This document shows positions 46,074 to 53,425 of a stretch of 64,000 nt of DNA, piece after piece. Origin of the DNA: a virus. Made by a program: the position numbers and the translations under genes. The stretch lies in IMG/VR virus record IMGVR_UViG_3300026097_000015, positions 37,545 to 101,544 of that record; one strand, given 5' to 3'. Position 1 is the first letter of the stretch, and every line of letters begins with the position of its first letter. The notes beneath the pieces are model-generated. The model was not told where the DNA came from, ran no database searches, and was given only the letters and a program-made list of their open reading frames with translations.

Positions 46074-47309
46074 GTGGCAGATAGTTATAAAATTTTAGCA
46101 CAAGATGTTGCATTGGGTTCAGCAGCTCAAAATAGATACCTCGCATTTGTGGATCAGAGCTCTTTCCCAGTCGTTGCGTACTCAACAAATTTGATTGAAT
46201 GGTCTATTTCATCTCTACCAGTATCCGCACACTGGGACAATACACTTTTTGTAGAAGGAAATTTTTACGCAATAGGAATTCAGGGTAGTGGTCAAGGGCC
46301 TGCCTCAATATATTCAACAGACGGAGTCAATTGGACACAGGGCAATATACCTTCTTCATCAATAGGGCAAGGTCTTGCGTATGGAAGCGGAAAGTTTGTC
46401 ACAACAGGTTATTACAATACTAACTTTGCATACTCTACAGATTTTATTACTTGGACTACAGGCACCATGCCATCGGTCACAGGCTCCCCAAACTGGCCAA
46501 CGATAATCTATGGTGAGGATAAGTTTGTTGCTATAAAAGAAAGTCAGACTACCTATTCCACGGATGGAATAAGCTGGAGCTCTAATGCAAGCTTGCCAGC
46601 CAGCATGCTTGACGTTGTGTATGGAGCAAATAATTTTGTTGCAGTGGGATCCACAAATGCAGCTTATTCTACTGACGGAATAAGCTGGTCTAACTCAACA
46701 ATTCCCGTAAGTGTAAGTTCCGTTACTTATGGTAATGAAAGGTTTGTTGCGATTGGTTCGGGCACCCTAGCCGCCTACTCCACAGACGGAGCAACCTGGG
46801 TCTCATCCTCTATACCAAATCAATCATGGGAAGACATTTCTTTTGGAGATGGCAAGTTTTTTGCAGTTTCTGAGCCCAATTTTAATTTAGAATACGCTGT
46901 TATTGCCTACTCAACTGACGGAATTACATGGACAGAGCAAGCCTTGCCAGCAGAAGAAAGCTTCTTTTCCAATTACTATTATCGAAATGTGGCTTATGGA
47001 AATCCAGTACTGCCTACTGCACAAACACAATATACAGTTCCATCATCAAATCAAGCCGCAATTTCTGCAATCTCTGTTATTAATAATGATACTACTTCCC
47101 ACACTTATTCTGTAGGGATTGTAAAGGCGTCAGATACTGGAACGCTTGGCATCTCAAATACTCAAACAATTATCCCAACTAAAACAATAGCTGCTGGAGA
47201 AATTGATGAAATTGTCGGGGGTATTACATTATCAGCAGGAGATCAAATTAGAACAAATTCTGATTCTACTGACTTAACAGTACACATTTACGGAACGGAG
47301 ATATCATAA
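46074..47309 (+). CDS. Propeller adhesin 1 (7 repeats + C-terminal sandwich)
   Basis: 411 residues from GTG. Seven copies of a 40-44-residue unit centred on [AF]YSTDG-I-[ST]-W and V-x-YG-x-x-x-F-V-A fill residues 20-310, as expected for a seven-bladed beta-propeller (BNR/Ycf48-type). The last 90 residues (YTVPSSNQAAISAISV...YGTEIS) form a sandwich like 40313. This is the most diverged of four tandem paralogues. Predicted receptor-binding protein. Confidence 0.75.
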   Translation: MADSYKILAQDVALGSAAQNRYLAFVDQSSFPVVAYSTNLIEWSISSLPVSAHWDNTLFVEGNFYAIGIQGSGQGPASIYSTDGVNWTQGNIPSSSIGQGLAYGSGKFVTTGYYNTNFAYSTDFITWTTGTMPSVTGSPNWPTIIYGEDKFVAIKESQTTYSTDGISWSSNASLPASMLDVVYGANNFVAVGSTNAAYSTDGISWSNSTIPVSVSSVTYGNERFVAIGSGTLAAYSTDGATWVSSSIPNQSWEDISFGDGKFFAVSEPNFNLEYAVIAYSTDGITWTEQALPAEESFFSNYYYRNVAYGNPVLPTAQTQYTVPSSNQAAISAISVINNDTTSHTYSVGIVKASDTGTLGISNTQTIIPTKTIAAGEIDEIVGGITLSAGDQIRTNSDSTDLTVHIYGTEIS

Positions 47310-48559
47310 TGAGTTTAGATTATAAGAATTTGGGGCAAAGTGGTGTTGCTGGTGAAGGATTAGAGAATTATTATGTATCAGTAGCTGGAGGCCCTGGAGG
47401 CAACTCTACTACTACCGCCGCCTACTCCACAGACGGAATCACCTGGGCAGAGTCAACCATGCCAGTAAGTGCAAGGTGGACATCAGTAACCTATGGAGAA
47501 GGCAAATTTATAGCAGCACCCTACTACTCCGATAACGCATTTTACTCTACCGATGGCATAACCTGGACACAAGCTACTATAGGGTTAAACTTTTACCTGT
47601 CAGCTGTAGGCTATGGAGACGGCAAGTTTGTAGCCCTAAGCCCAGCAGCCTCAACCAACGCCGCCTACTCCACCGATGGCATCACTTGGATAGCCACCAC
47701 TAAGCCAGTCTCGTACTCTAATGAGTGGTACTCTATAACATATGGAAACGGAAAGTTTTTGTCAGTAAATCAGTCGAATATTAATGGGCAGCAGCTGGGT
47801 TTCACCCTTATTTCTACAGACGGAATAACATGGACAGAATCTTCAACTAATCTACCATCAGATTTTGTATGGATAGGCGAAGCAGCTTATGGAGATGGTA
47901 AGTTCGTAACAGTAGCTACCTTTTCCTCCACTGCCGCCTACTCCACAGACGGAATTACCTGGACACAGTCCACCATGCCTACAGGTTCAGGATGGTCCTC
48001 AGTAACCTACGGAGATGGAAAATTTGTAGCAGTGGCAGGCTCCTACACCACTGCCGCCTACTCAACCGACGGTATTACATGGACACAGTCCACCCTCCCA
48101 GCAAGCGACCCATGGAAATCAGTAACCTATGGAGGCGATAAATTTGTAACAGTAGCTGGAGGAAGCGGCACCTCCACCGCCGCCGCTTACTCAACCGACG
48201 GTATTACATGGACACAGTCCACCCTCCCAGCAACTGAAAATTGGTTTTCAGTAATCCACGGAGAAAACCTTTTTAAATTATCCGAAAACAATCAATACAC
48301 AGTACCATCTACAAAAGAAGCTATCATTTCATCTATTTACATAGCAAATAATGAAACAACTTCTCAGACCTATTCTGTGGCGGTAGTTCCAAATGGTGAA
48401 ACACTATCAAACATTCACTACATTAGAAAAGATATTTCAATTGATGGAAATGACTTCCATACTATTGGTACTAAGATTACCCTTGCAGAAGGGGATCAGA
48501 TAATTACCGAGGGTACATCACTAAATGTATCTGTCAACATCTTTGGATTGGAGAAATAG
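47309..48559 (+). CDS. Propeller adhesin 2 (7 repeats + C-terminal sandwich)
   Basis: 416 residues, start overlapping the preceding stop. Seven YSTDGITW units, many near-identical at the DNA level (TCCACCCTCCCAGCAA and similar). C-terminal YTVPSTKEAIISSIYIAN...NIFGLEK sandwich as in adhesin 1. Stop overlaps the next GTG. Confidence 0.75.
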   Translation: MSLDYKNLGQSGVAGEGLENYYVSVAGGPGGNSTTTAAYSTDGITWAESTMPVSARWTSVTYGEGKFIAAPYYSDNAFYSTDGITWTQATIGLNFYLSAVGYGDGKFVALSPAASTNAAYSTDGITWIATTKPVSYSNEWYSITYGNGKFLSVNQSNINGQQLGFTLISTDGITWTESSTNLPSDFVWIGEAAYGDGKFVTVATFSSTAAYSTDGITWTQSTMPTGSGWSSVTYGDGKFVAVAGSYTTAAYSTDGITWTQSTLPASDPWKSVTYGGDKFVTVAGGSGTSTAAAYSTDGITWTQSTLPATENWFSVIHGENLFKLSENNQYTVPSTKEAIISSIYIANNETTSQTYSVAVVPNGETLSNIHYIRKDISIDGNDFHTIGTKITLAEGDQIITEGTSLNVSVNIFGLEK

Positions 48560-49545
48560 TGGGTTTCAAAACTTATAAGAACGGTGAAGAGGTAGGTATT
48601 TTTGATACCGCTGATATTTCCAATGTAAGTGTAGATGACTTAGAGGTTAGGGATGTTGTTAGTAATATTTTTGTTGCAGTAGCTAATGCCTCCACCGACG
48701 CCGCTTACTCCACCGACGGAATCACCTGGACAGCCATCACCATGCCAACATCTCCAGATTGGTCCTCAGTAACCTATGGAAATGGAAAGTTTGTAGCAGT
48801 ATCTACTAACGATTTTGACATCGCCGCTTACTCCACCGACGGAATCACCTGGACACAGACCACTATGCCTACAAGCAACAACTGGCAATCAGTGACCTAC
48901 GGAGATGGAAAGTTTGTGGCAGTAGTCAACTCTTACCCTTCCTCCACCGCCGCTTACTCCACCGACGGAATTACCTGGGCACAAGCTACTTTGCCAACAA
49001 GCAATGGCTGGTACTCAGTAACCTATGGAGATGGCAAGTTTGTAGCAATAGCCACCTACGGCACCGCCGCCGCCTACTCAACCGATGGCATTACCTGGAC
49101 ACAGTCTACCCTCCCAGCAAATGGATTCTGGTATTCAGTAACCCACGGAGACAATAAGTTTGTAGCAGTAGCCGAAGGCACCGCCGCTTACTCCACAGAC
49201 GGAATAACTTGGACGGGGACTACAACTACAGCAGGGGTCTGGGATTCGATAACTCACGGAAATGATAGATTTTTAGCAGTTGGGTACAACTCTTCTGCCG
49301 CATCATACTCTGATGACGGCATTACTTGGACTCAGGCAACATTGCCAGCCTCTAGAACATGGCGAGTAACCTTTGGTAATGGAAGGTATATAGCAGTTTC
49401 AGACTCTTTTTCCAGCTCCACCACCGCAGCCTACTCCACAGACGGCATTACCTGGACACAGTCCACCTTGCCATCAGGTGCAAATTGGACATCAGTAACC
49501 CACGGAGCACCATTATTAACTAAATCAATCAGAAATCTGTTTTAA
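48559..49545 (+). CDS. Propeller adhesin 3 (7 repeats, short tail)
   Basis: 328 residues from GTG. The N-terminal GFKTYKNGEEVGIFDTADIS adaptor is shared with adhesin 4. Seven YSTDGITW/YSDDGITW units follow; the C-terminus is LLTKSIRNLF instead of a sandwich. Unit 6 has YSDDG. Confidence 0.75.
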   Translation: MGFKTYKNGEEVGIFDTADISNVSVDDLEVRDVVSNIFVAVANASTDAAYSTDGITWTAITMPTSPDWSSVTYGNGKFVAVSTNDFDIAAYSTDGITWTQTTMPTSNNWQSVTYGDGKFVAVVNSYPSSTAAYSTDGITWAQATLPTSNGWYSVTYGDGKFVAIATYGTAAAYSTDGITWTQSTLPANGFWYSVTHGDNKFVAVAEGTAAYSTDGITWTGTTTTAGVWDSITHGNDRFLAVGYNSSAASYSDDGITWTQATLPASRTWRVTFGNGRYIAVSDSFSSSTTAAYSTDGITWTQSTLPSGANWTSVTHGAPLLTKSIRNLF

Positions 49546-49556
49546 CTGGGGGAATA

Positions 49557-50564
49557 TTGGTATTTAGAACTTATAAAAACGGAACAAGGCTAGCAAACTT
49601 TGATTCTTTAGAAATTGAAGATAAGCTAAGCTTAGATGATTTGCAGGTTAATGATGTTGCTACTGATATTTTTGTTGCAGTAGCCGATGCCTCTTCCACC
49701 GCCGCCTACTCCACAGATGGTATCACCTGGACACAGTCCACCCTGCCAGCAAGTACTGCCTGGAACTCAGTAACTTATGGCGACGGAAAATTTGTAGCAG
49801 TAGCGGGAGACAACTATTCCTCCGACACAGCAGCCTACTCAACCGACGCCATAACCTGGACACAGTCCACCCTCCCAGCAAGCGATAGCTTGTTCAGACT
49901 AACTTATGGAGACGGTAAATTTGTAGCAATAGCTAATGCCTCCACCGACGCCGCCTACTCCACAGACGGCATTACCTGGACACAGTCTACTCTCCCAAAT
50001 AACGGGATCTGGCATTCAGTAACTTATGGCGACGGAAAATTTGTAGCAGTAGCTGATTATCCCGCCATTGCAGCCTACTCAACAGACGGAATCACCTGGA
50101 CACAGTCCACCTTGCCAAGTTTTGGTTTTACAGCAGTAACTTATGGAGACGGTAAATTTGCAGCATTGACTACTTTTGGTTCTACCAACACCGCAGCCTA
50201 CTCCACCGACGGTATTACTTGGACACAAACTACTCTGGCAGGGGAGGTGTGGGCTTCAGTAACCTATGGAGACGGTAAGTTTGTAGCAGTATCGGGATTA
50301 AGTAGCACCTCGTCCACCGCCGCCTACTCCACAGATGGTATCACCTGGACACAAACCACTCTACCAGCAAGTGAGAGCTGGTACTCAGTAATCTATGGAA
50401 CCGACAGGTTTGTAGCAGTAGCCAGTAACGCACTTTACGCCAACGCCGCCTACTCTACCGATGGCATCACTTGGACACAGTCTACTTCGACCCCAAGTGC
50501 TGCCTGGCGATCAGTAACTTACGGGTCATCACTATTCACTAAATCAATCAGAGAACTATTCTAA
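49557..50564 (+). CDS. Propeller adhesin 4 (7 repeats, short tail)
   Basis: 335 residues from TTG. FRTYKNGTRLANFDSLEIED adaptor, seven units (unit 2 reads YSTDAITW), and SLFTKSIRELF tail. Closest partner is adhesin 3, so 3 and 4 are a recent duplication. Units are about 125 bp apart in DNA. Confidence 0.75.
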   Translation: MVFRTYKNGTRLANFDSLEIEDKLSLDDLQVNDVATDIFVAVADASSTAAYSTDGITWTQSTLPASTAWNSVTYGDGKFVAVAGDNYSSDTAAYSTDAITWTQSTLPASDSLFRLTYGDGKFVAIANASTDAAYSTDGITWTQSTLPNNGIWHSVTYGDGKFVAVADYPAIAAYSTDGITWTQSTLPSFGFTAVTYGDGKFAALTTFGSTNTAAYSTDGITWTQTTLAGEVWASVTYGDGKFVAVSGLSSTSSTAAYSTDGITWTQTTLPASESWYSVIYGTDRFVAVASNALYANAAYSTDGITWTQSTSTPSAAWRSVTYGSSLFTKSIRELF

Positions 50565-50920: not shown

Positions 50921-50938
50921 TTTAATTAAATCAGTTTA

Positions 50939-50966
50939 CGGAGTCACTAGACAGTGACTCCGTTTT
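50939..50966 (+). terminator. Rho-independent terminator
   Basis: CGGAGTCACT-AGAC-AGTGACTCCG followed by TTTT. Perfect 10-bp stem. Separates the fibre array from the sulfation cassette. Confidence 0.93.
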
Positions 50967-50967
50967 C

Positions 50968-50976
50968 TGTTATAAT
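50968..50976 (+). promoter_or_regulatory. Extended -10 promoter of the sulfation cassette
   Basis: TG-T-TATAAT immediately after the terminator; ATG 50999 follows 22 nt later. Confidence 0.65.
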
Positions 50977-50998
50977 AAATGTAAAAGATTGGCAGGGT

Positions 50999-51658
50999 AT
51001 GGAACATTACGATGTATTAATAGCTACCCCTGGGCACAGCCTAGAGGCACAGTATGTACAAAGTTTATTAGAAACAACAGCAGAATTAAATAATCAAGGT
51101 ATATCTTATAAATGGCTAAACGCCTATTCTTCTCTAGTTCATAATGCAAGAGAAATGACAGCTACTGGCGGTATTGATAGAAATCTTAATCCCCTAGATG
51201 CAGGACCCCTAGGAGATAAAGTAACATACAATAAAATATTTTGGATTGATTCAGATATTTCCTGGACCCCAGAAGATTTTATAAAGCTGTATGAATCAGA
51301 ATATGATGTCGTAACAGGTGCATACCTTTTGGCTGATGGAACTACTACATCAGTTCATGAATGGGGTGTTGTTGGCGGTATGCCAAAAGAAAGAATCATG
51401 TCCTTAGAAGAGCCTCTTAAAATTCAAAGTATGGGATTTGGATTTGCCGCCATAAAAGCAGGGGTATTTGAAAAGCTAGAAAGACCATGGTTTGGTCACT
51501 ATACACAACAAATACAATTGCCAAATGGCAAAATTATGGACACATATCTAGGAGAAGACATCTCTTGGTGTGTCAATGCATATAAAGCGGGTATTGAAAT
51601 TTATCTAGACCCAACAGTATTAGTAGGACATATGAAGAAGGTAAAAATCGAATGGTAG
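50999..51658 (+). CDS. GT-A-fold glycosyltransferase-like protein
   Basis: 219 residues from ATG 50999. The GTG at 50954 lies inside the terminator and is rejected. YDVLIATPGHSLEAQYVQSL, the D-x-D of IFWIDSDISWTPEDF and LGEDISWCVNAYKAG fit a GT-A fold glycosyltransferase. It is the first gene of a four-gene cluster with sulfotransferase and APS kinase and so may build the acceptor glycan. Overlaps the next gene by 7 nt. Confidence 0.75.
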   Translation: MEHYDVLIATPGHSLEAQYVQSLLETTAELNNQGISYKWLNAYSSLVHNAREMTATGGIDRNLNPLDAGPLGDKVTYNKIFWIDSDISWTPEDFIKLYESEYDVVTGAYLLADGTTTSVHEWGVVGGMPKERIMSLEEPLKIQSMGFGFAAIKAGVFEKLERPWFGHYTQQIQLPNGKIMDTYLGEDISWCVNAYKAGIEIYLDPTVLVGHMKKVKIEW

Positions 51659-52473
51659 ACAAAAAATATTATTTTATGGGAGGATTGCCAAGATCTGGTA
51701 GCACTCTTTTGGCATCAATCTTAAATCAAAATCCAGATATTTATGTATCTGCTCAATCACCTCTGCCCAATATGTTGGGGGCAGCGTATAATCAATATCA
51801 AAGTAAAGAAAATCTAGACTCAAGTAGATTTGATGATATCTATAATGTAGTAGATAACGTTATACCGCTTTTCTATGAGAAGCACCCAGAGAAATACATT
51901 ATTGACAAAAACTTTTCTTGGCTAGAGCCACACCCATATGTAATTCTAGAGAATCATCTTAAAAATGATATTCGTGTTATCTGTCCAGTTCGTAATGTGA
52001 TGGATATTCTAGCTTCTTGGAATAGGCTTTGTGAGGCAGACCCAAATAATGAATATGACAAAATTATCATAAAGGGAGATAAGAGTAAAAGAGCAATTGC
52101 TGATAAAAGGGCAGACTTTTTTATGAATATGAATAATGAAGAAATGACGGGTATTCTAAACGGCATTGAAAATCTTAAAAGAATTCTATACCCACAATTT
52201 AAAGACAACATCATGCTTGTAGATTATGATGACTTAATGTCAGACACCCCAGGTACAATCAAAAAGGTATACGACTTTTTAGGCATTGAACACTTTGACC
52301 ACACCTTTGAAAACATGAAAACAACTCACGAATATAAAGATATCTGGGGTGTAAAAGGTCACCACGAAATTAAGCCCACTATTCAAAAAGAAGAATATGA
52401 CCTAGAGTCAATCTTCTCTAAGCAAACAATTGAAAAGTATTCAGGTCTAGAATTTTGGAAGGGTATTAAATGA
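51652..52473 (+). CDS. Sulfotransferase (PAPS-dependent)
   Basis: 273 residues. MGGLPRSGSTLLASIL (10-24) is the 5'-phosphosulfate loop. CPVRNVMDILASWNRL carries the 3'-phosphate-binding arginine/serine pair, and VDYDDLMSDTPGTIKKVYDFLG the C-terminal helix of the family. Transfers sulfate from PAPS to a hydroxyl or amine. Stop overlaps the next ATG, so it is coupled to the PAPS-forming enzyme. Confidence 0.9.
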   Translation: MVDKKYYFMGGLPRSGSTLLASILNQNPDIYVSAQSPLPNMLGAAYNQYQSKENLDSSRFDDIYNVVDNVIPLFYEKHPEKYIIDKNFSWLEPHPYVILENHLKNDIRVICPVRNVMDILASWNRLCEADPNNEYDKIIIKGDKSKRAIADKRADFFMNMNNEEMTGILNGIENLKRILYPQFKDNIMLVDYDDLMSDTPGTIKKVYDFLGIEHFDHTFENMKTTHEYKDIWGVKGHHEIKPTIQKEEYDLESIFSKQTIEKYSGLEFWKGIK

Positions 52474-53219
52474 TTATCCAAATCATAGGACTACCAGGTA
52501 CAGGTAAGACTGCCTTAGCAAAAGAGCTATGCAGAAGAACAGATGCTATTCATTTGAATGCAGATGATGTGCGTGCTGATTTAAATAAAGACCTTGGATT
52601 TTCTGTAGAGGACAGGGTAGAGCAGGCTAGAAGAATGGGGGCATTATCTAGACTTCTATCTAATCAAGGGAAGCTTGTGGTTGTAGACTTTGTAAATCCA
52701 ACACAAGAAACCAGGGAAGCCTTTGGTAATGCAGATAGAATTATCTGGGTTAACAGAATTGAAAGCGGTAGGTTTGAAGATACAAACAATCTATGGGAAG
52801 ACCCAAAGCGTCACGACCTTCAAATCTTTGCTGGTTTAACTATTGAAGAAGAAGCAATGGAAGTCTTAAAAGCTTTTAACATTCATGATTGGACTGAGCC
52901 AACTACCTTGCAATTAGGCAGGTATCAGCCATGGCATGAGGGTCATAGTGCACTGTATGATGCAGGACTAGAAAGAACTTCACAGGTTTTAGTAGGTGTA
53001 CGTAATACCGAGGGCACATCAGAAAAGGACCCAATGGGATATTCAGAAGTAGAGTCTTACATTCGTAAAGATAGGCCAAATGCTCTAATTATGAAACTAC
53101 CAAATATCACAAATATTATCTATGGACGTGATGTGGGATATAAGATTGAAAAGGTAGAACTATCTCAAGAACTACAATCTATTTCAGCTACACAAAAGCG
53201 TAAAGAGATGGGTATTTAG
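52470..53219 (+). CDS. APS kinase fused to HxGH nucleotidylyltransferase domain
   Basis: 249 residues. The N-terminal P-loop kinase has GLPGTGKTALAKEL (7-20), LNADDVRADLN and VVDFVNPTQE, as in adenylylsulfate kinases (CysC). The C-terminal 110 residues contain RYQPWHEGHSALYDAG (HEGH at 156-159) and ISATQKRKEM (238-247), which match HxGH/ISxTxxR nucleotidylyltransferases (ATP sulfurylase- or cytidylyltransferase-like). It could make PAPS from ATP and sulfate or APS. Coupled at both ends. Confidence 0.82.
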   Translation: MIIQIIGLPGTGKTALAKELCRRTDAIHLNADDVRADLNKDLGFSVEDRVEQARRMGALSRLLSNQGKLVVVDFVNPTQETREAFGNADRIIWVNRIESGRFEDTNNLWEDPKRHDLQIFAGLTIEEEAMEVLKAFNIHDWTEPTTLQLGRYQPWHEGHSALYDAGLERTSQVLVGVRNTEGTSEKDPMGYSEVESYIRKDRPNALIMKLPNITNIIYGRDVGYKIEKVELSQELQSISATQKRKEMGI

Positions 53220-53425
53220 TGGAAGCGACAAAATCTAGAAGTGCTGCAAAAGCCATTACCTGGAGAATAACAGGAACCCTAGATACCTTTTTGATTGCTT
53301 GGCTAATTACCAGAGAACCATTAATTGCAAGTAGTATTGCTGTTTTAGAAGTAATAACTAAAACAGTTTTGTATTATTTGCACGAAAGAGGATGGAATAG
53401 AATTTCCTGGGGTAGGGAAAAATAA
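53219..53425 (+). CDS. DUF2061 small membrane protein
   Basis: 68 residues from GTG overlapping the preceding TAG. KSRSAAKAITWRITGTLDTFLIAWLI and SIAVLEVITKTVLYYLHERGWNRI match DUF2061, with two spans. DUF2061 is often linked to APS kinase genes, supporting a sulfur-handling role, perhaps sulfate transport or complex anchoring. Confidence 0.85.
   Translation: MEATKSRSAAKAITWRITGTLDTFLIAWLITREPLIASSIAVLEVITKTVLYYLHERGWNRISWGREK

What the first reader, a model, noticed from the sequence alone, without database searches (positions are those of the whole stretch)
50939..53425. Phage-encoded sulfation cassette
Seen: a terminator, a dedicated promoter, then four overlapping genes: GT-A glycosyltransferase-like, PAPS-type sulfotransferase (GLPRSGSTLL and CPVRN...S motifs), an APS kinase fused to an HxGH...ISATQKR nucleotidylyltransferase domain, and DUF2061. 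Known: APS kinase makes PAPS, the sulfate donor for sulfotransferases, and DUF2061 is often found with APS kinases. Inference: the module builds and sulfates a glycan, on a virion fibre, host surface or nucleoside. It lies next to the fibre array. A phage carrying donor synthesis and transfer together is unusual.
Basis: partly seen in the sequence, partly recalled or inferred. Interest (0 to 1): 0.85.

Follow-up and report, generated by a model that had tools for sequence, protein, structure and literature searches.

The report
Phage cassette for sulfating a glycan
A bacterial virus carries, beside its tail-fibre genes, a small operon that probably makes the activated sulfate donor PAPS and transfers sulfate onto a sugar or fibre; hundreds of relatives of its key enzyme occur in environmental phage sequences, and that enzyme is an unusual, trimmed-down version of the cellular one.

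Summary
The four overlapping genes are real (50999-53425), with a terminator hairpin and an overlapping strong promoter upstream. The sulfotransferase is a genuine PAPS-type enzyme; its PAPS-binding Arg and Ser are invariant in 127 relatives. The third protein joins an APS-kinase-like domain (phosphosulfate-binding residues kept, catalytic lid deleted) to a NadM-like nucleotidylyltransferase domain, not an ATP sulfurylase by sequence or fold. DUF2061 is tied to sulfate activation in bacteria: it lies between a sulfotransferase and cysD/cysN in rhizobial nod clusters and beside CysD/CysC in 13 of 21 Bacteroidota genomes. The kinase family has more than 580 viral relatives. Sulfotransferases sit near it far more often than in a control set (50/81 versus 0/80 loci). 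Some sulfotransferase genes are followed directly by a kinase lacking the second domain. Syntenic relatives replace kinase and DUF2061 with a second glycosyltransferase, or insert a TauE transporter. So a sulfation module is well supported. The fibre-glycan target, and whether the second domain makes APS, are inferred. Counter-evidence: some Stenotrophomonas/Xanthomonas phages carry the fusion without a nearby sulfotransferase. New variant of a known kind.

The parts
50938..50963 (+). intrinsic-terminator-like hairpin (11-bp stem) closing the upstream fibre operon
50948..50976 (+). sigma-70-type promoter TAGACA-17-TATAAT with extended -10, overlapping the hairpin; a similar TTGATC-17-TACAAT is visible at the orthologous place in L082/L169
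   Evidence: 11 of 12 match; chance about 3e-4 in the 78-base gap; L082/L169 box read by eye
50999..51658 (+). GT-A-type glycosyltransferase-like protein (219 aa; invariant D84-S-D86 and G185-E186-D187)
   Evidence: phrog_1574 1.7e-52; profile matches STIV glycosyltransferase A197 (2c0n) at 5.5e-4; conserved columns
51652..52473 (+). PAPS-dependent sulfotransferase (273 aa); 5'-phosphosulfate loop P13-R-S-G-S-T18, 3'-phosphate site R114 and S122
   Evidence: Pfam PF00685/PF13469; PDB profile hits polyketide-synthase and CurM sulfotransferases and TPST; R14, R114, S122, H238 100% conserved in about 127 relatives
52470..52877 (+). N-terminal lid-less APS-kinase-like domain of the 249-aa fusion protein
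   Evidence: PF01583; 50 best Foldseek hits all APS kinase entries; D32, R35, F44, R49 conserved, lid missing
52884..53219 (+). C-terminal HxGH nucleotidylyltransferase domain (NadM-like) of the fusion protein
   Evidence: PDB profile 2qjt 2.5e-6; Foldseek NMNAT/PPAT/CTP:glycerol-3-phosphate cytidylyltransferase
53219..53425 (+). DUF2061 small membrane protein
   Evidence: PF09834 81.7 bits; linked to sulfate activation in bacteria
46074..50564 (+). context: four fibre-like paralogues with YSTDGITWTQSTLP repeats, the candidate modification targets
   Evidence: the same gene order (fibre repeats, GT, ST) in L170 and L175
50594..50920 (+). context: small FI-like gene between the fibres and the cassette; relatives lie near the sulfotransferase in L003, L005, L082, L170, L175
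53440..53826 (+). context: SSB gene directly downstream (an SSB-like gene also follows the cassette in L175)

Best explanation
This is a phage sulfation operon. The glycosyltransferase-like protein puts or extends a sugar on an acceptor, most likely one of the repeat-rich tail fibres encoded next to it. The sulfotransferase moves sulfate from PAPS to that glycan. The fusion protein supplies PAPS: its APS-kinase-like domain phosphorylates the 3'-OH of APS, and its NadM-like domain most likely makes the APS (AMP transferred from ATP to sulfate), so that the protein would be a miniature PAPS synthase. DUF2061 is a membrane partner of sulfate activation, perhaps helping sulfate supply. Shown: the genes, their families, the conserved binding residues and the genomic associations. 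Inferred: PAPS production, APS production by the second domain, the glycan/fibre target and the role of DUF2061.
For: Sulfotransferase family and invariant PAPS-site residues. The kinase domain keeps the residues that bind APS in M. tuberculosis CysC (PMC4373884): Arg483/Arg497 = R35/R49, Phe492 = F44, Asp480 = D32, 99-100% conserved in 136 sequences. Sulfotransferase profile within the flanks in 50/81 loci of one kinase subfamily versus 0/80 NrdB-centred control loci; nearest sulfotransferase closer than chance in 24 records (combined p about 4e-6, records not independent). Sulfotransferase genes followed directly by a mini-kinase without the second domain in L216, L221 and similar loci. DUF2061 in 80/82 loci of the window's kinase subfamily, between sulfotransferase and cysD/cysN in Mesorhizobium nod clusters, beside CysD/CysC in 13 of 21 Bacteroidota genomes and in one ORF with CysC. 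Syntenic relatives L170/L175: fibre repeats, GT, sulfotransferase, then GT-B and (L170) sugar epimerase. L180: kinase-NTase, TauE/SafE transporter (5.7e-36), DUF2061, GT.
Against: The kinase lacks the lid that carries Lys562 and Arg559 in CysC and falls far below the NCBIfam apsK cut-off. The second domain resembles NMN adenylyltransferase, with no ATP sulfurylase hit. In Casjensviridae phages of Stenotrophomonas/Xanthomonas the fusion protein sits beside MazG (NADAR in Bhz60) with no sulfotransferase or DUF2061 found there. 49 of 82 loci of the window's own subfamily show no sulfotransferase by the three profiles used, though many are fragments. No biochemical data.
Confidence: 0.6

Rival explanations
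1. The kinase makes PAPS from APS supplied by the host's CysDN; the fused NadM-like domain does something else, such as activating a phosphorylated sugar or alditol to an NDP- or CDP-donor for the glycosyltransferase. The cassette is still a sulfated-glycan module.
For: Mini-kinases without the second domain pair with sulfotransferases, so the second domain is dispensable for the pairing; it also resembles cytidylyltransferases (CTP:glycerol-3-phosphate, HEP cytidylyltransferase) by fold.
Against: Fusion to the kinase and near-complete co-conservation suggest sequential steps. If the host is of the acI type, which lacks assimilatory sulfate reduction (PMC5301498), no host APS would be available; the host is only inferred from portal and capsid similarity to Streptomyces phages.
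Confidence: 0.25
2. The fusion protein is not a sulfate enzyme but a kinase/adenylyltransferase of nucleotide or NAD metabolism (NadR- or CoA-synthase-like logic); its nearness to sulfotransferases reflects a shared hot spot of accessory genes.
For: C-domain is NadM-like; in Casjensviridae it lies beside MazG and, in Bhz60, NADAR; the kinase scores below the apsK cut-off and lacks the lid.
Against: The APS phosphosulfate contacts are conserved; DUF2061 is independently tied to CysD/CysC and nod-cluster sulfation operons; direct stop-start overlap with sulfotransferases; association far above control.
Confidence: 0.12
3. The module sulfates a host surface glycan (for example to block superinfection) and not the virion. 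(This concerns the target only and can hold together with either account of the donor.)
For: Known sulfated bacterial glycans such as Nod factors are made by the same gene set (sulfotransferase, DUF2061, cysD/cysN), and DUF2061 is predicted by Pfam to be a membrane protein.
Against: The cassette is embedded between fibre genes and structural genes, and related cassettes lie beside fibre-like repeat genes in many relatives.
Confidence: 0.22

Closest known systems
Rhizobial Nod-factor sulfation genes (sulfotransferase in the NodH position, DUF2061, cysD/cysN = nodP/nodQ)
   Same: same logic: PAPS production, sulfotransferase and glycan synthesis in one cluster, with DUF2061 in between
   Different: rhizobia use CysD and CysN-CysC; the phage uses a lid-less kinase fused to a NadM-like domain, and no CysD-type or ATP sulfurylase gene was found in the records searched
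Human PAPS synthase PAPSS1 (APS kinase then ATP sulfurylase in one chain)
   Same: domain order kinase then HxGH-type nucleotidylyltransferase; kinase fold match
   Different: 249 aa versus a chain of about 600 aa; second domain not homologous to ATP sulfurylase at detectable level; kinase lid missing
APS kinase CysC (4rfv, M. tuberculosis)
   Same: fold (TM-score 0.79 by target), P-loop, both phosphosulfate arginines, adenine-stacking Phe
   Different: lid 552-581 deleted, DGD changed to NAD, Asn of the DRxxN motif changed to Gln
NadM nicotinamide-nucleotide adenylyltransferase (2qjt, 1f9a)
   Same: GRxQPxHxGH and ISxTxxR motifs
   Different: 111 aa against about 165 aa; far below NCBIfam cut-offs
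Sulfotransferases of cyanophages and OM43 phages (S-SKS1, S-SRM01; PMC10580990)
   Same: same sulfotransferase family
   Different: no kinase-NTase relative was found in those cyanophage records; that paper calls the function of phage sulfotransferases unclear

Membership tests
PAPS-dependent sulfotransferase (PF00685/PF13469) | score above the curated Pfam cut-off | tested here: met
   55.8 vs 22 and 56.1 vs 27 bits
PAPS-dependent sulfotransferase (PF00685/PF13469) | 5'-phosphosulfate loop and 3'-phosphate Arg/Ser pair | tested here: met
   R14 100%, R114 100%, S122 100% in 124-127 relatives
PAPS-dependent sulfotransferase (PF00685/PF13469) | transfers sulfate from PAPS | not testable with these tools
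   needs enzyme assay
APS kinase (apsK, TIGR00455 / PF01583) | Pfam cut-off | tested here: met
   62.3 vs 21.1 bits, but only residues 2-85
APS kinase (apsK, TIGR00455 / PF01583) | NCBIfam equivalog cut-off | tested here: not met
   62.1 vs 138.7 bits
APS kinase (apsK, TIGR00455 / PF01583) | APS contacts: two Arg, adenine-stacking Phe, Asp of LDGD | tested here: met
   R35, R49, F44 100%, D32 99%
APS kinase (apsK, TIGR00455 / PF01583) | substrate lid with catalytic Lys and ATP-stacking Arg | tested here: not met
   segment RDPKGLYKKARAGEL absent
ATP sulfurylase / bifunctional PAPS synthase | ATP sulfurylase domain (PF01747) | tested here: not met
   no hit in 22 records; no ATP sulfurylase among PDB profile hits to the C-domain up to E=1
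NMN adenylyltransferase, NadM type | GRxQPxHxGH and ISxTxxR ATP motifs | tested here: met
   invariant or nearly so
NMN adenylyltransferase, NadM type | full-length family score | tested here: not met
   18-24 vs 127-409 bits
DUF2061 (PF09834) | Pfam cut-off | tested here: met
   81.7 vs 23.1 bits
GT-A glycosyltransferase | DxD and ED motifs, GT-A similarity | tested here: inconclusive
   D84-S-D86 and E186-D187 invariant; STIV A197 at 5.5e-4; no Pfam cut-off reached

The most novel reading that the evidence does not exclude
The fusion protein is a miniature PAPS synthase whose NadM-like domain is a new, independently evolved sulfate adenylyltransferase, letting phages sulfate their fibres in hosts that have lost sulfate assimilation.
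Probability: 0.33. Interest if true: 0.82.

Novelty: new variant of a known kind. Interest (0 to 1): 0.62.

Why it matters
Sulfotransferases in phage genomes have been noted but their function is called unclear (PMC10580990). Here the donor-making kinase, DUF2061, sulfotransferase and glycosyltransferase lie in one operon next to fibre genes, and the kinase family is widespread in environmental phages. This makes sulfation of phage virions or host glycans directly testable, points to DUF2061 as a sulfate-activation partner, and offers a candidate new ATP sulfurylase type.

Tried and rejected
Scan with the Stenotrophomonas kinase found no viral relatives by pattern. Searches for CysD-type (PF01507), ATP sulfurylase (PF01747) and PAP phosphatase (PF00459) in kinase-bearing records were all negative. 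No paper in the library holds DUF2061 with phage or with nodPQ, nor sulfotransferase, cyanophage and adenylylsulfate kinase together. The GT-B identity of the sulfotransferase fusions (about 590 aa) rests only on weak Glyco_transf_9 matches (0.09 and 0.27) and is not used. A NoeE match of the sulfotransferase covers only 26 residues and is not used. The idea that DNA or a nucleoside is the target was set aside: no base-modifying gene was seen beside the window cassette, though this was not searched exhaustively.

Full report
What is there. A hairpin terminator closes the upstream fibre-like genes, and a strong promoter-like site (11 of 12, extended -10) starts inside that hairpin. The window is part of a 101,544-bp IMG/VR virus record. 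Its portal (45%) and major capsid (42%) proteins are nearest to Streptomyces phages, so an actinobacterial host is likely but not shown.

Sulfotransferase. Pfam puts the 273-aa protein in Sulfotransfer_1/3 well above cut-off. An alignment profile finds polyketide-synthase, CurM and tyrosyl-protein sulfotransferase structures. The P-loop Arg, the 3'-phosphate Arg114 and Ser122, and His238 are 100% conserved in about 127 viral relatives.

Kinase-nucleotidylyltransferase fusion. The AlphaFold model is confident (pLDDT 92). The 50 best Foldseek hits are all APS kinase entries. Against the APS contacts described for M. tuberculosis CysC (PMC4373884), both phosphosulfate arginines, the adenine-stacking Phe and the LDGD Asp are kept. 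The lid carrying the 2'-OH-binding Lys and ATP-stacking Arg is deleted, and the score is less than half the NCBIfam apsK cut-off. It is therefore APS-kinase-like, not a member of the apsK equivalog. The C-terminal 111 aa, modelled alone (pLDDT 91), fall in the HxGH nucleotidylyltransferase superfamily: nearest NadM-type NMN adenylyltransferases by profile (2.5e-6) and NMNAT, PPAT and cytidylyltransferases by fold, at modest TM-scores of about 0.5. No ATP sulfurylase appears.

Does this protein belong to sulfation? Four lines say so for most members. (1) More than 580 viral relatives exist. In the second subfamily a sulfotransferase lies within the flanks of 50 of 81 loci; in 80 loci centred on the window's NrdB the same profiles found none. 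A whole-record Pfam search gives a softer contrast: Sulfotransfer_3 in 16 of 49 kinase records and in 3 of 25 NrdB records. Two further HIPKTAG-type sulfotransferase groups accompany the first subfamily; their profiles were built from those loci, so the 33/82 figure is partly circular. Collapsed at 90% identity, 10 of 26 and 6 of 16 kinase clusters have a sulfotransferase in some member. (2) Within records, the nearest sulfotransferase is closer than chance (combined p about 4e-6, records not independent). (3) Starting from sulfotransferases, the closest ones are followed directly by a mini-kinase lacking the second domain (L216, L221; in L213 with one gene between), once as part of a fusion (L223). 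More distant sulfotransferases have no kinase nearby. (4) DUF2061, present in 80 of 82 loci of the window's subfamily, sits between a sulfotransferase and cysD/cysN beside nodB, nodC and nodI in Mesorhizobium, beside CysD or CysC in 13 of 21 Bacteroidota genomes, and once in one ORF with CysC.

Glycan and fibre. The first gene is a GT-A-like protein related to the STIV glycosyltransferase A197. In syntenic relatives L170 and L175 the order is fibre repeats, this GT, sulfotransferase, then a GT-B enzyme and, in L170, a sugar epimerase in place of kinase and DUF2061. In L180 a TauE/SafE transporter lies between kinase and DUF2061, followed by the GT; this was seen in one locus only. Loci of the second subfamily often carry fibre-like repeat genes nearby. 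Fibre glycan is thus the most likely acceptor, but a host surface glycan is not excluded.

Mechanism. Most likely the fusion protein makes PAPS, the sulfotransferase uses it on a glycan laid down by the GT, and DUF2061 assists sulfate activation at the membrane. Whether the NadM-like domain makes APS is unproven. In favour: its fusion to the kinase in the domain order of human PAPS synthase, the absence of CysD-type or ATP sulfurylase genes from the records searched, and the report that acI freshwater Actinobacteria lack assimilatory sulfate reduction (PMC5301498), if such bacteria are hosts. Against: the mini-kinases manage without it, and its nearest characterised relatives act on NMN.

Counter-evidence. 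Casjensviridae phages of Stenotrophomonas and Xanthomonas carry the fusion beside MazG (and NADAR in Bhz60), with no sulfotransferase found in Bhz60 by two Pfam families and no DUF2061 hit among them. DLP6 has a Sulfotransfer_2 gene 90 kb away. No PAP phosphatase was found in 24 records, so the host would have to recycle PAP.

Judgement. New variant of a known kind; interest 0.62.

Noticed in passing
L060:9207-10757; L020 and about 20 further loci: A tryptophan-halogenase-like gene (PF04820, 4e-104) lies directly or nearly directly downstream of DUF2061 in about 23 kinase loci, with an Asp/Asn beta-hydroxylase-like gene upstream of the kinase in L067: a wider set of decoration enzymes.
   Followed up: partly
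L034:9701-10306; L223:2892-3806: 2OG-Fe(II) oxygenase-like gene near the kinase (L034, PF13640), and an oxygenase-like domain fused to the kinase in L223 (read by eye; no Pfam oxygenase hit there).
   Followed up: partly
L161, L162 (345-kb and 262-kb records): Very large phage records carry the kinase fusion next to a further P-loop protein (LTGPQGSGNHLW) and weak Sulfotransfer_3 matches; possibly another sulfotransferase family.
   Followed up: no
L086:7553-8729; L399: Casjensviridae phages carry the kinase-nucleotidylyltransferase directly after a NADAR gene (Bhz60) and near MazG, without a sulfotransferase found; its role there is unexplained.
   Followed up: partly
46074-50564: Four tandem fibre-like paralogues built of YSTDGITWTQSTLP..W.SVTYGDGKFVAV repeats, likely from duplication.
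   Followed up: no
L292 (E. coli K-12 cysDNC): E. coli has a different small inner-membrane protein (YgbE, DUF3561) next to cysDNC, perhaps an analogue of DUF2061.
   Followed up: no
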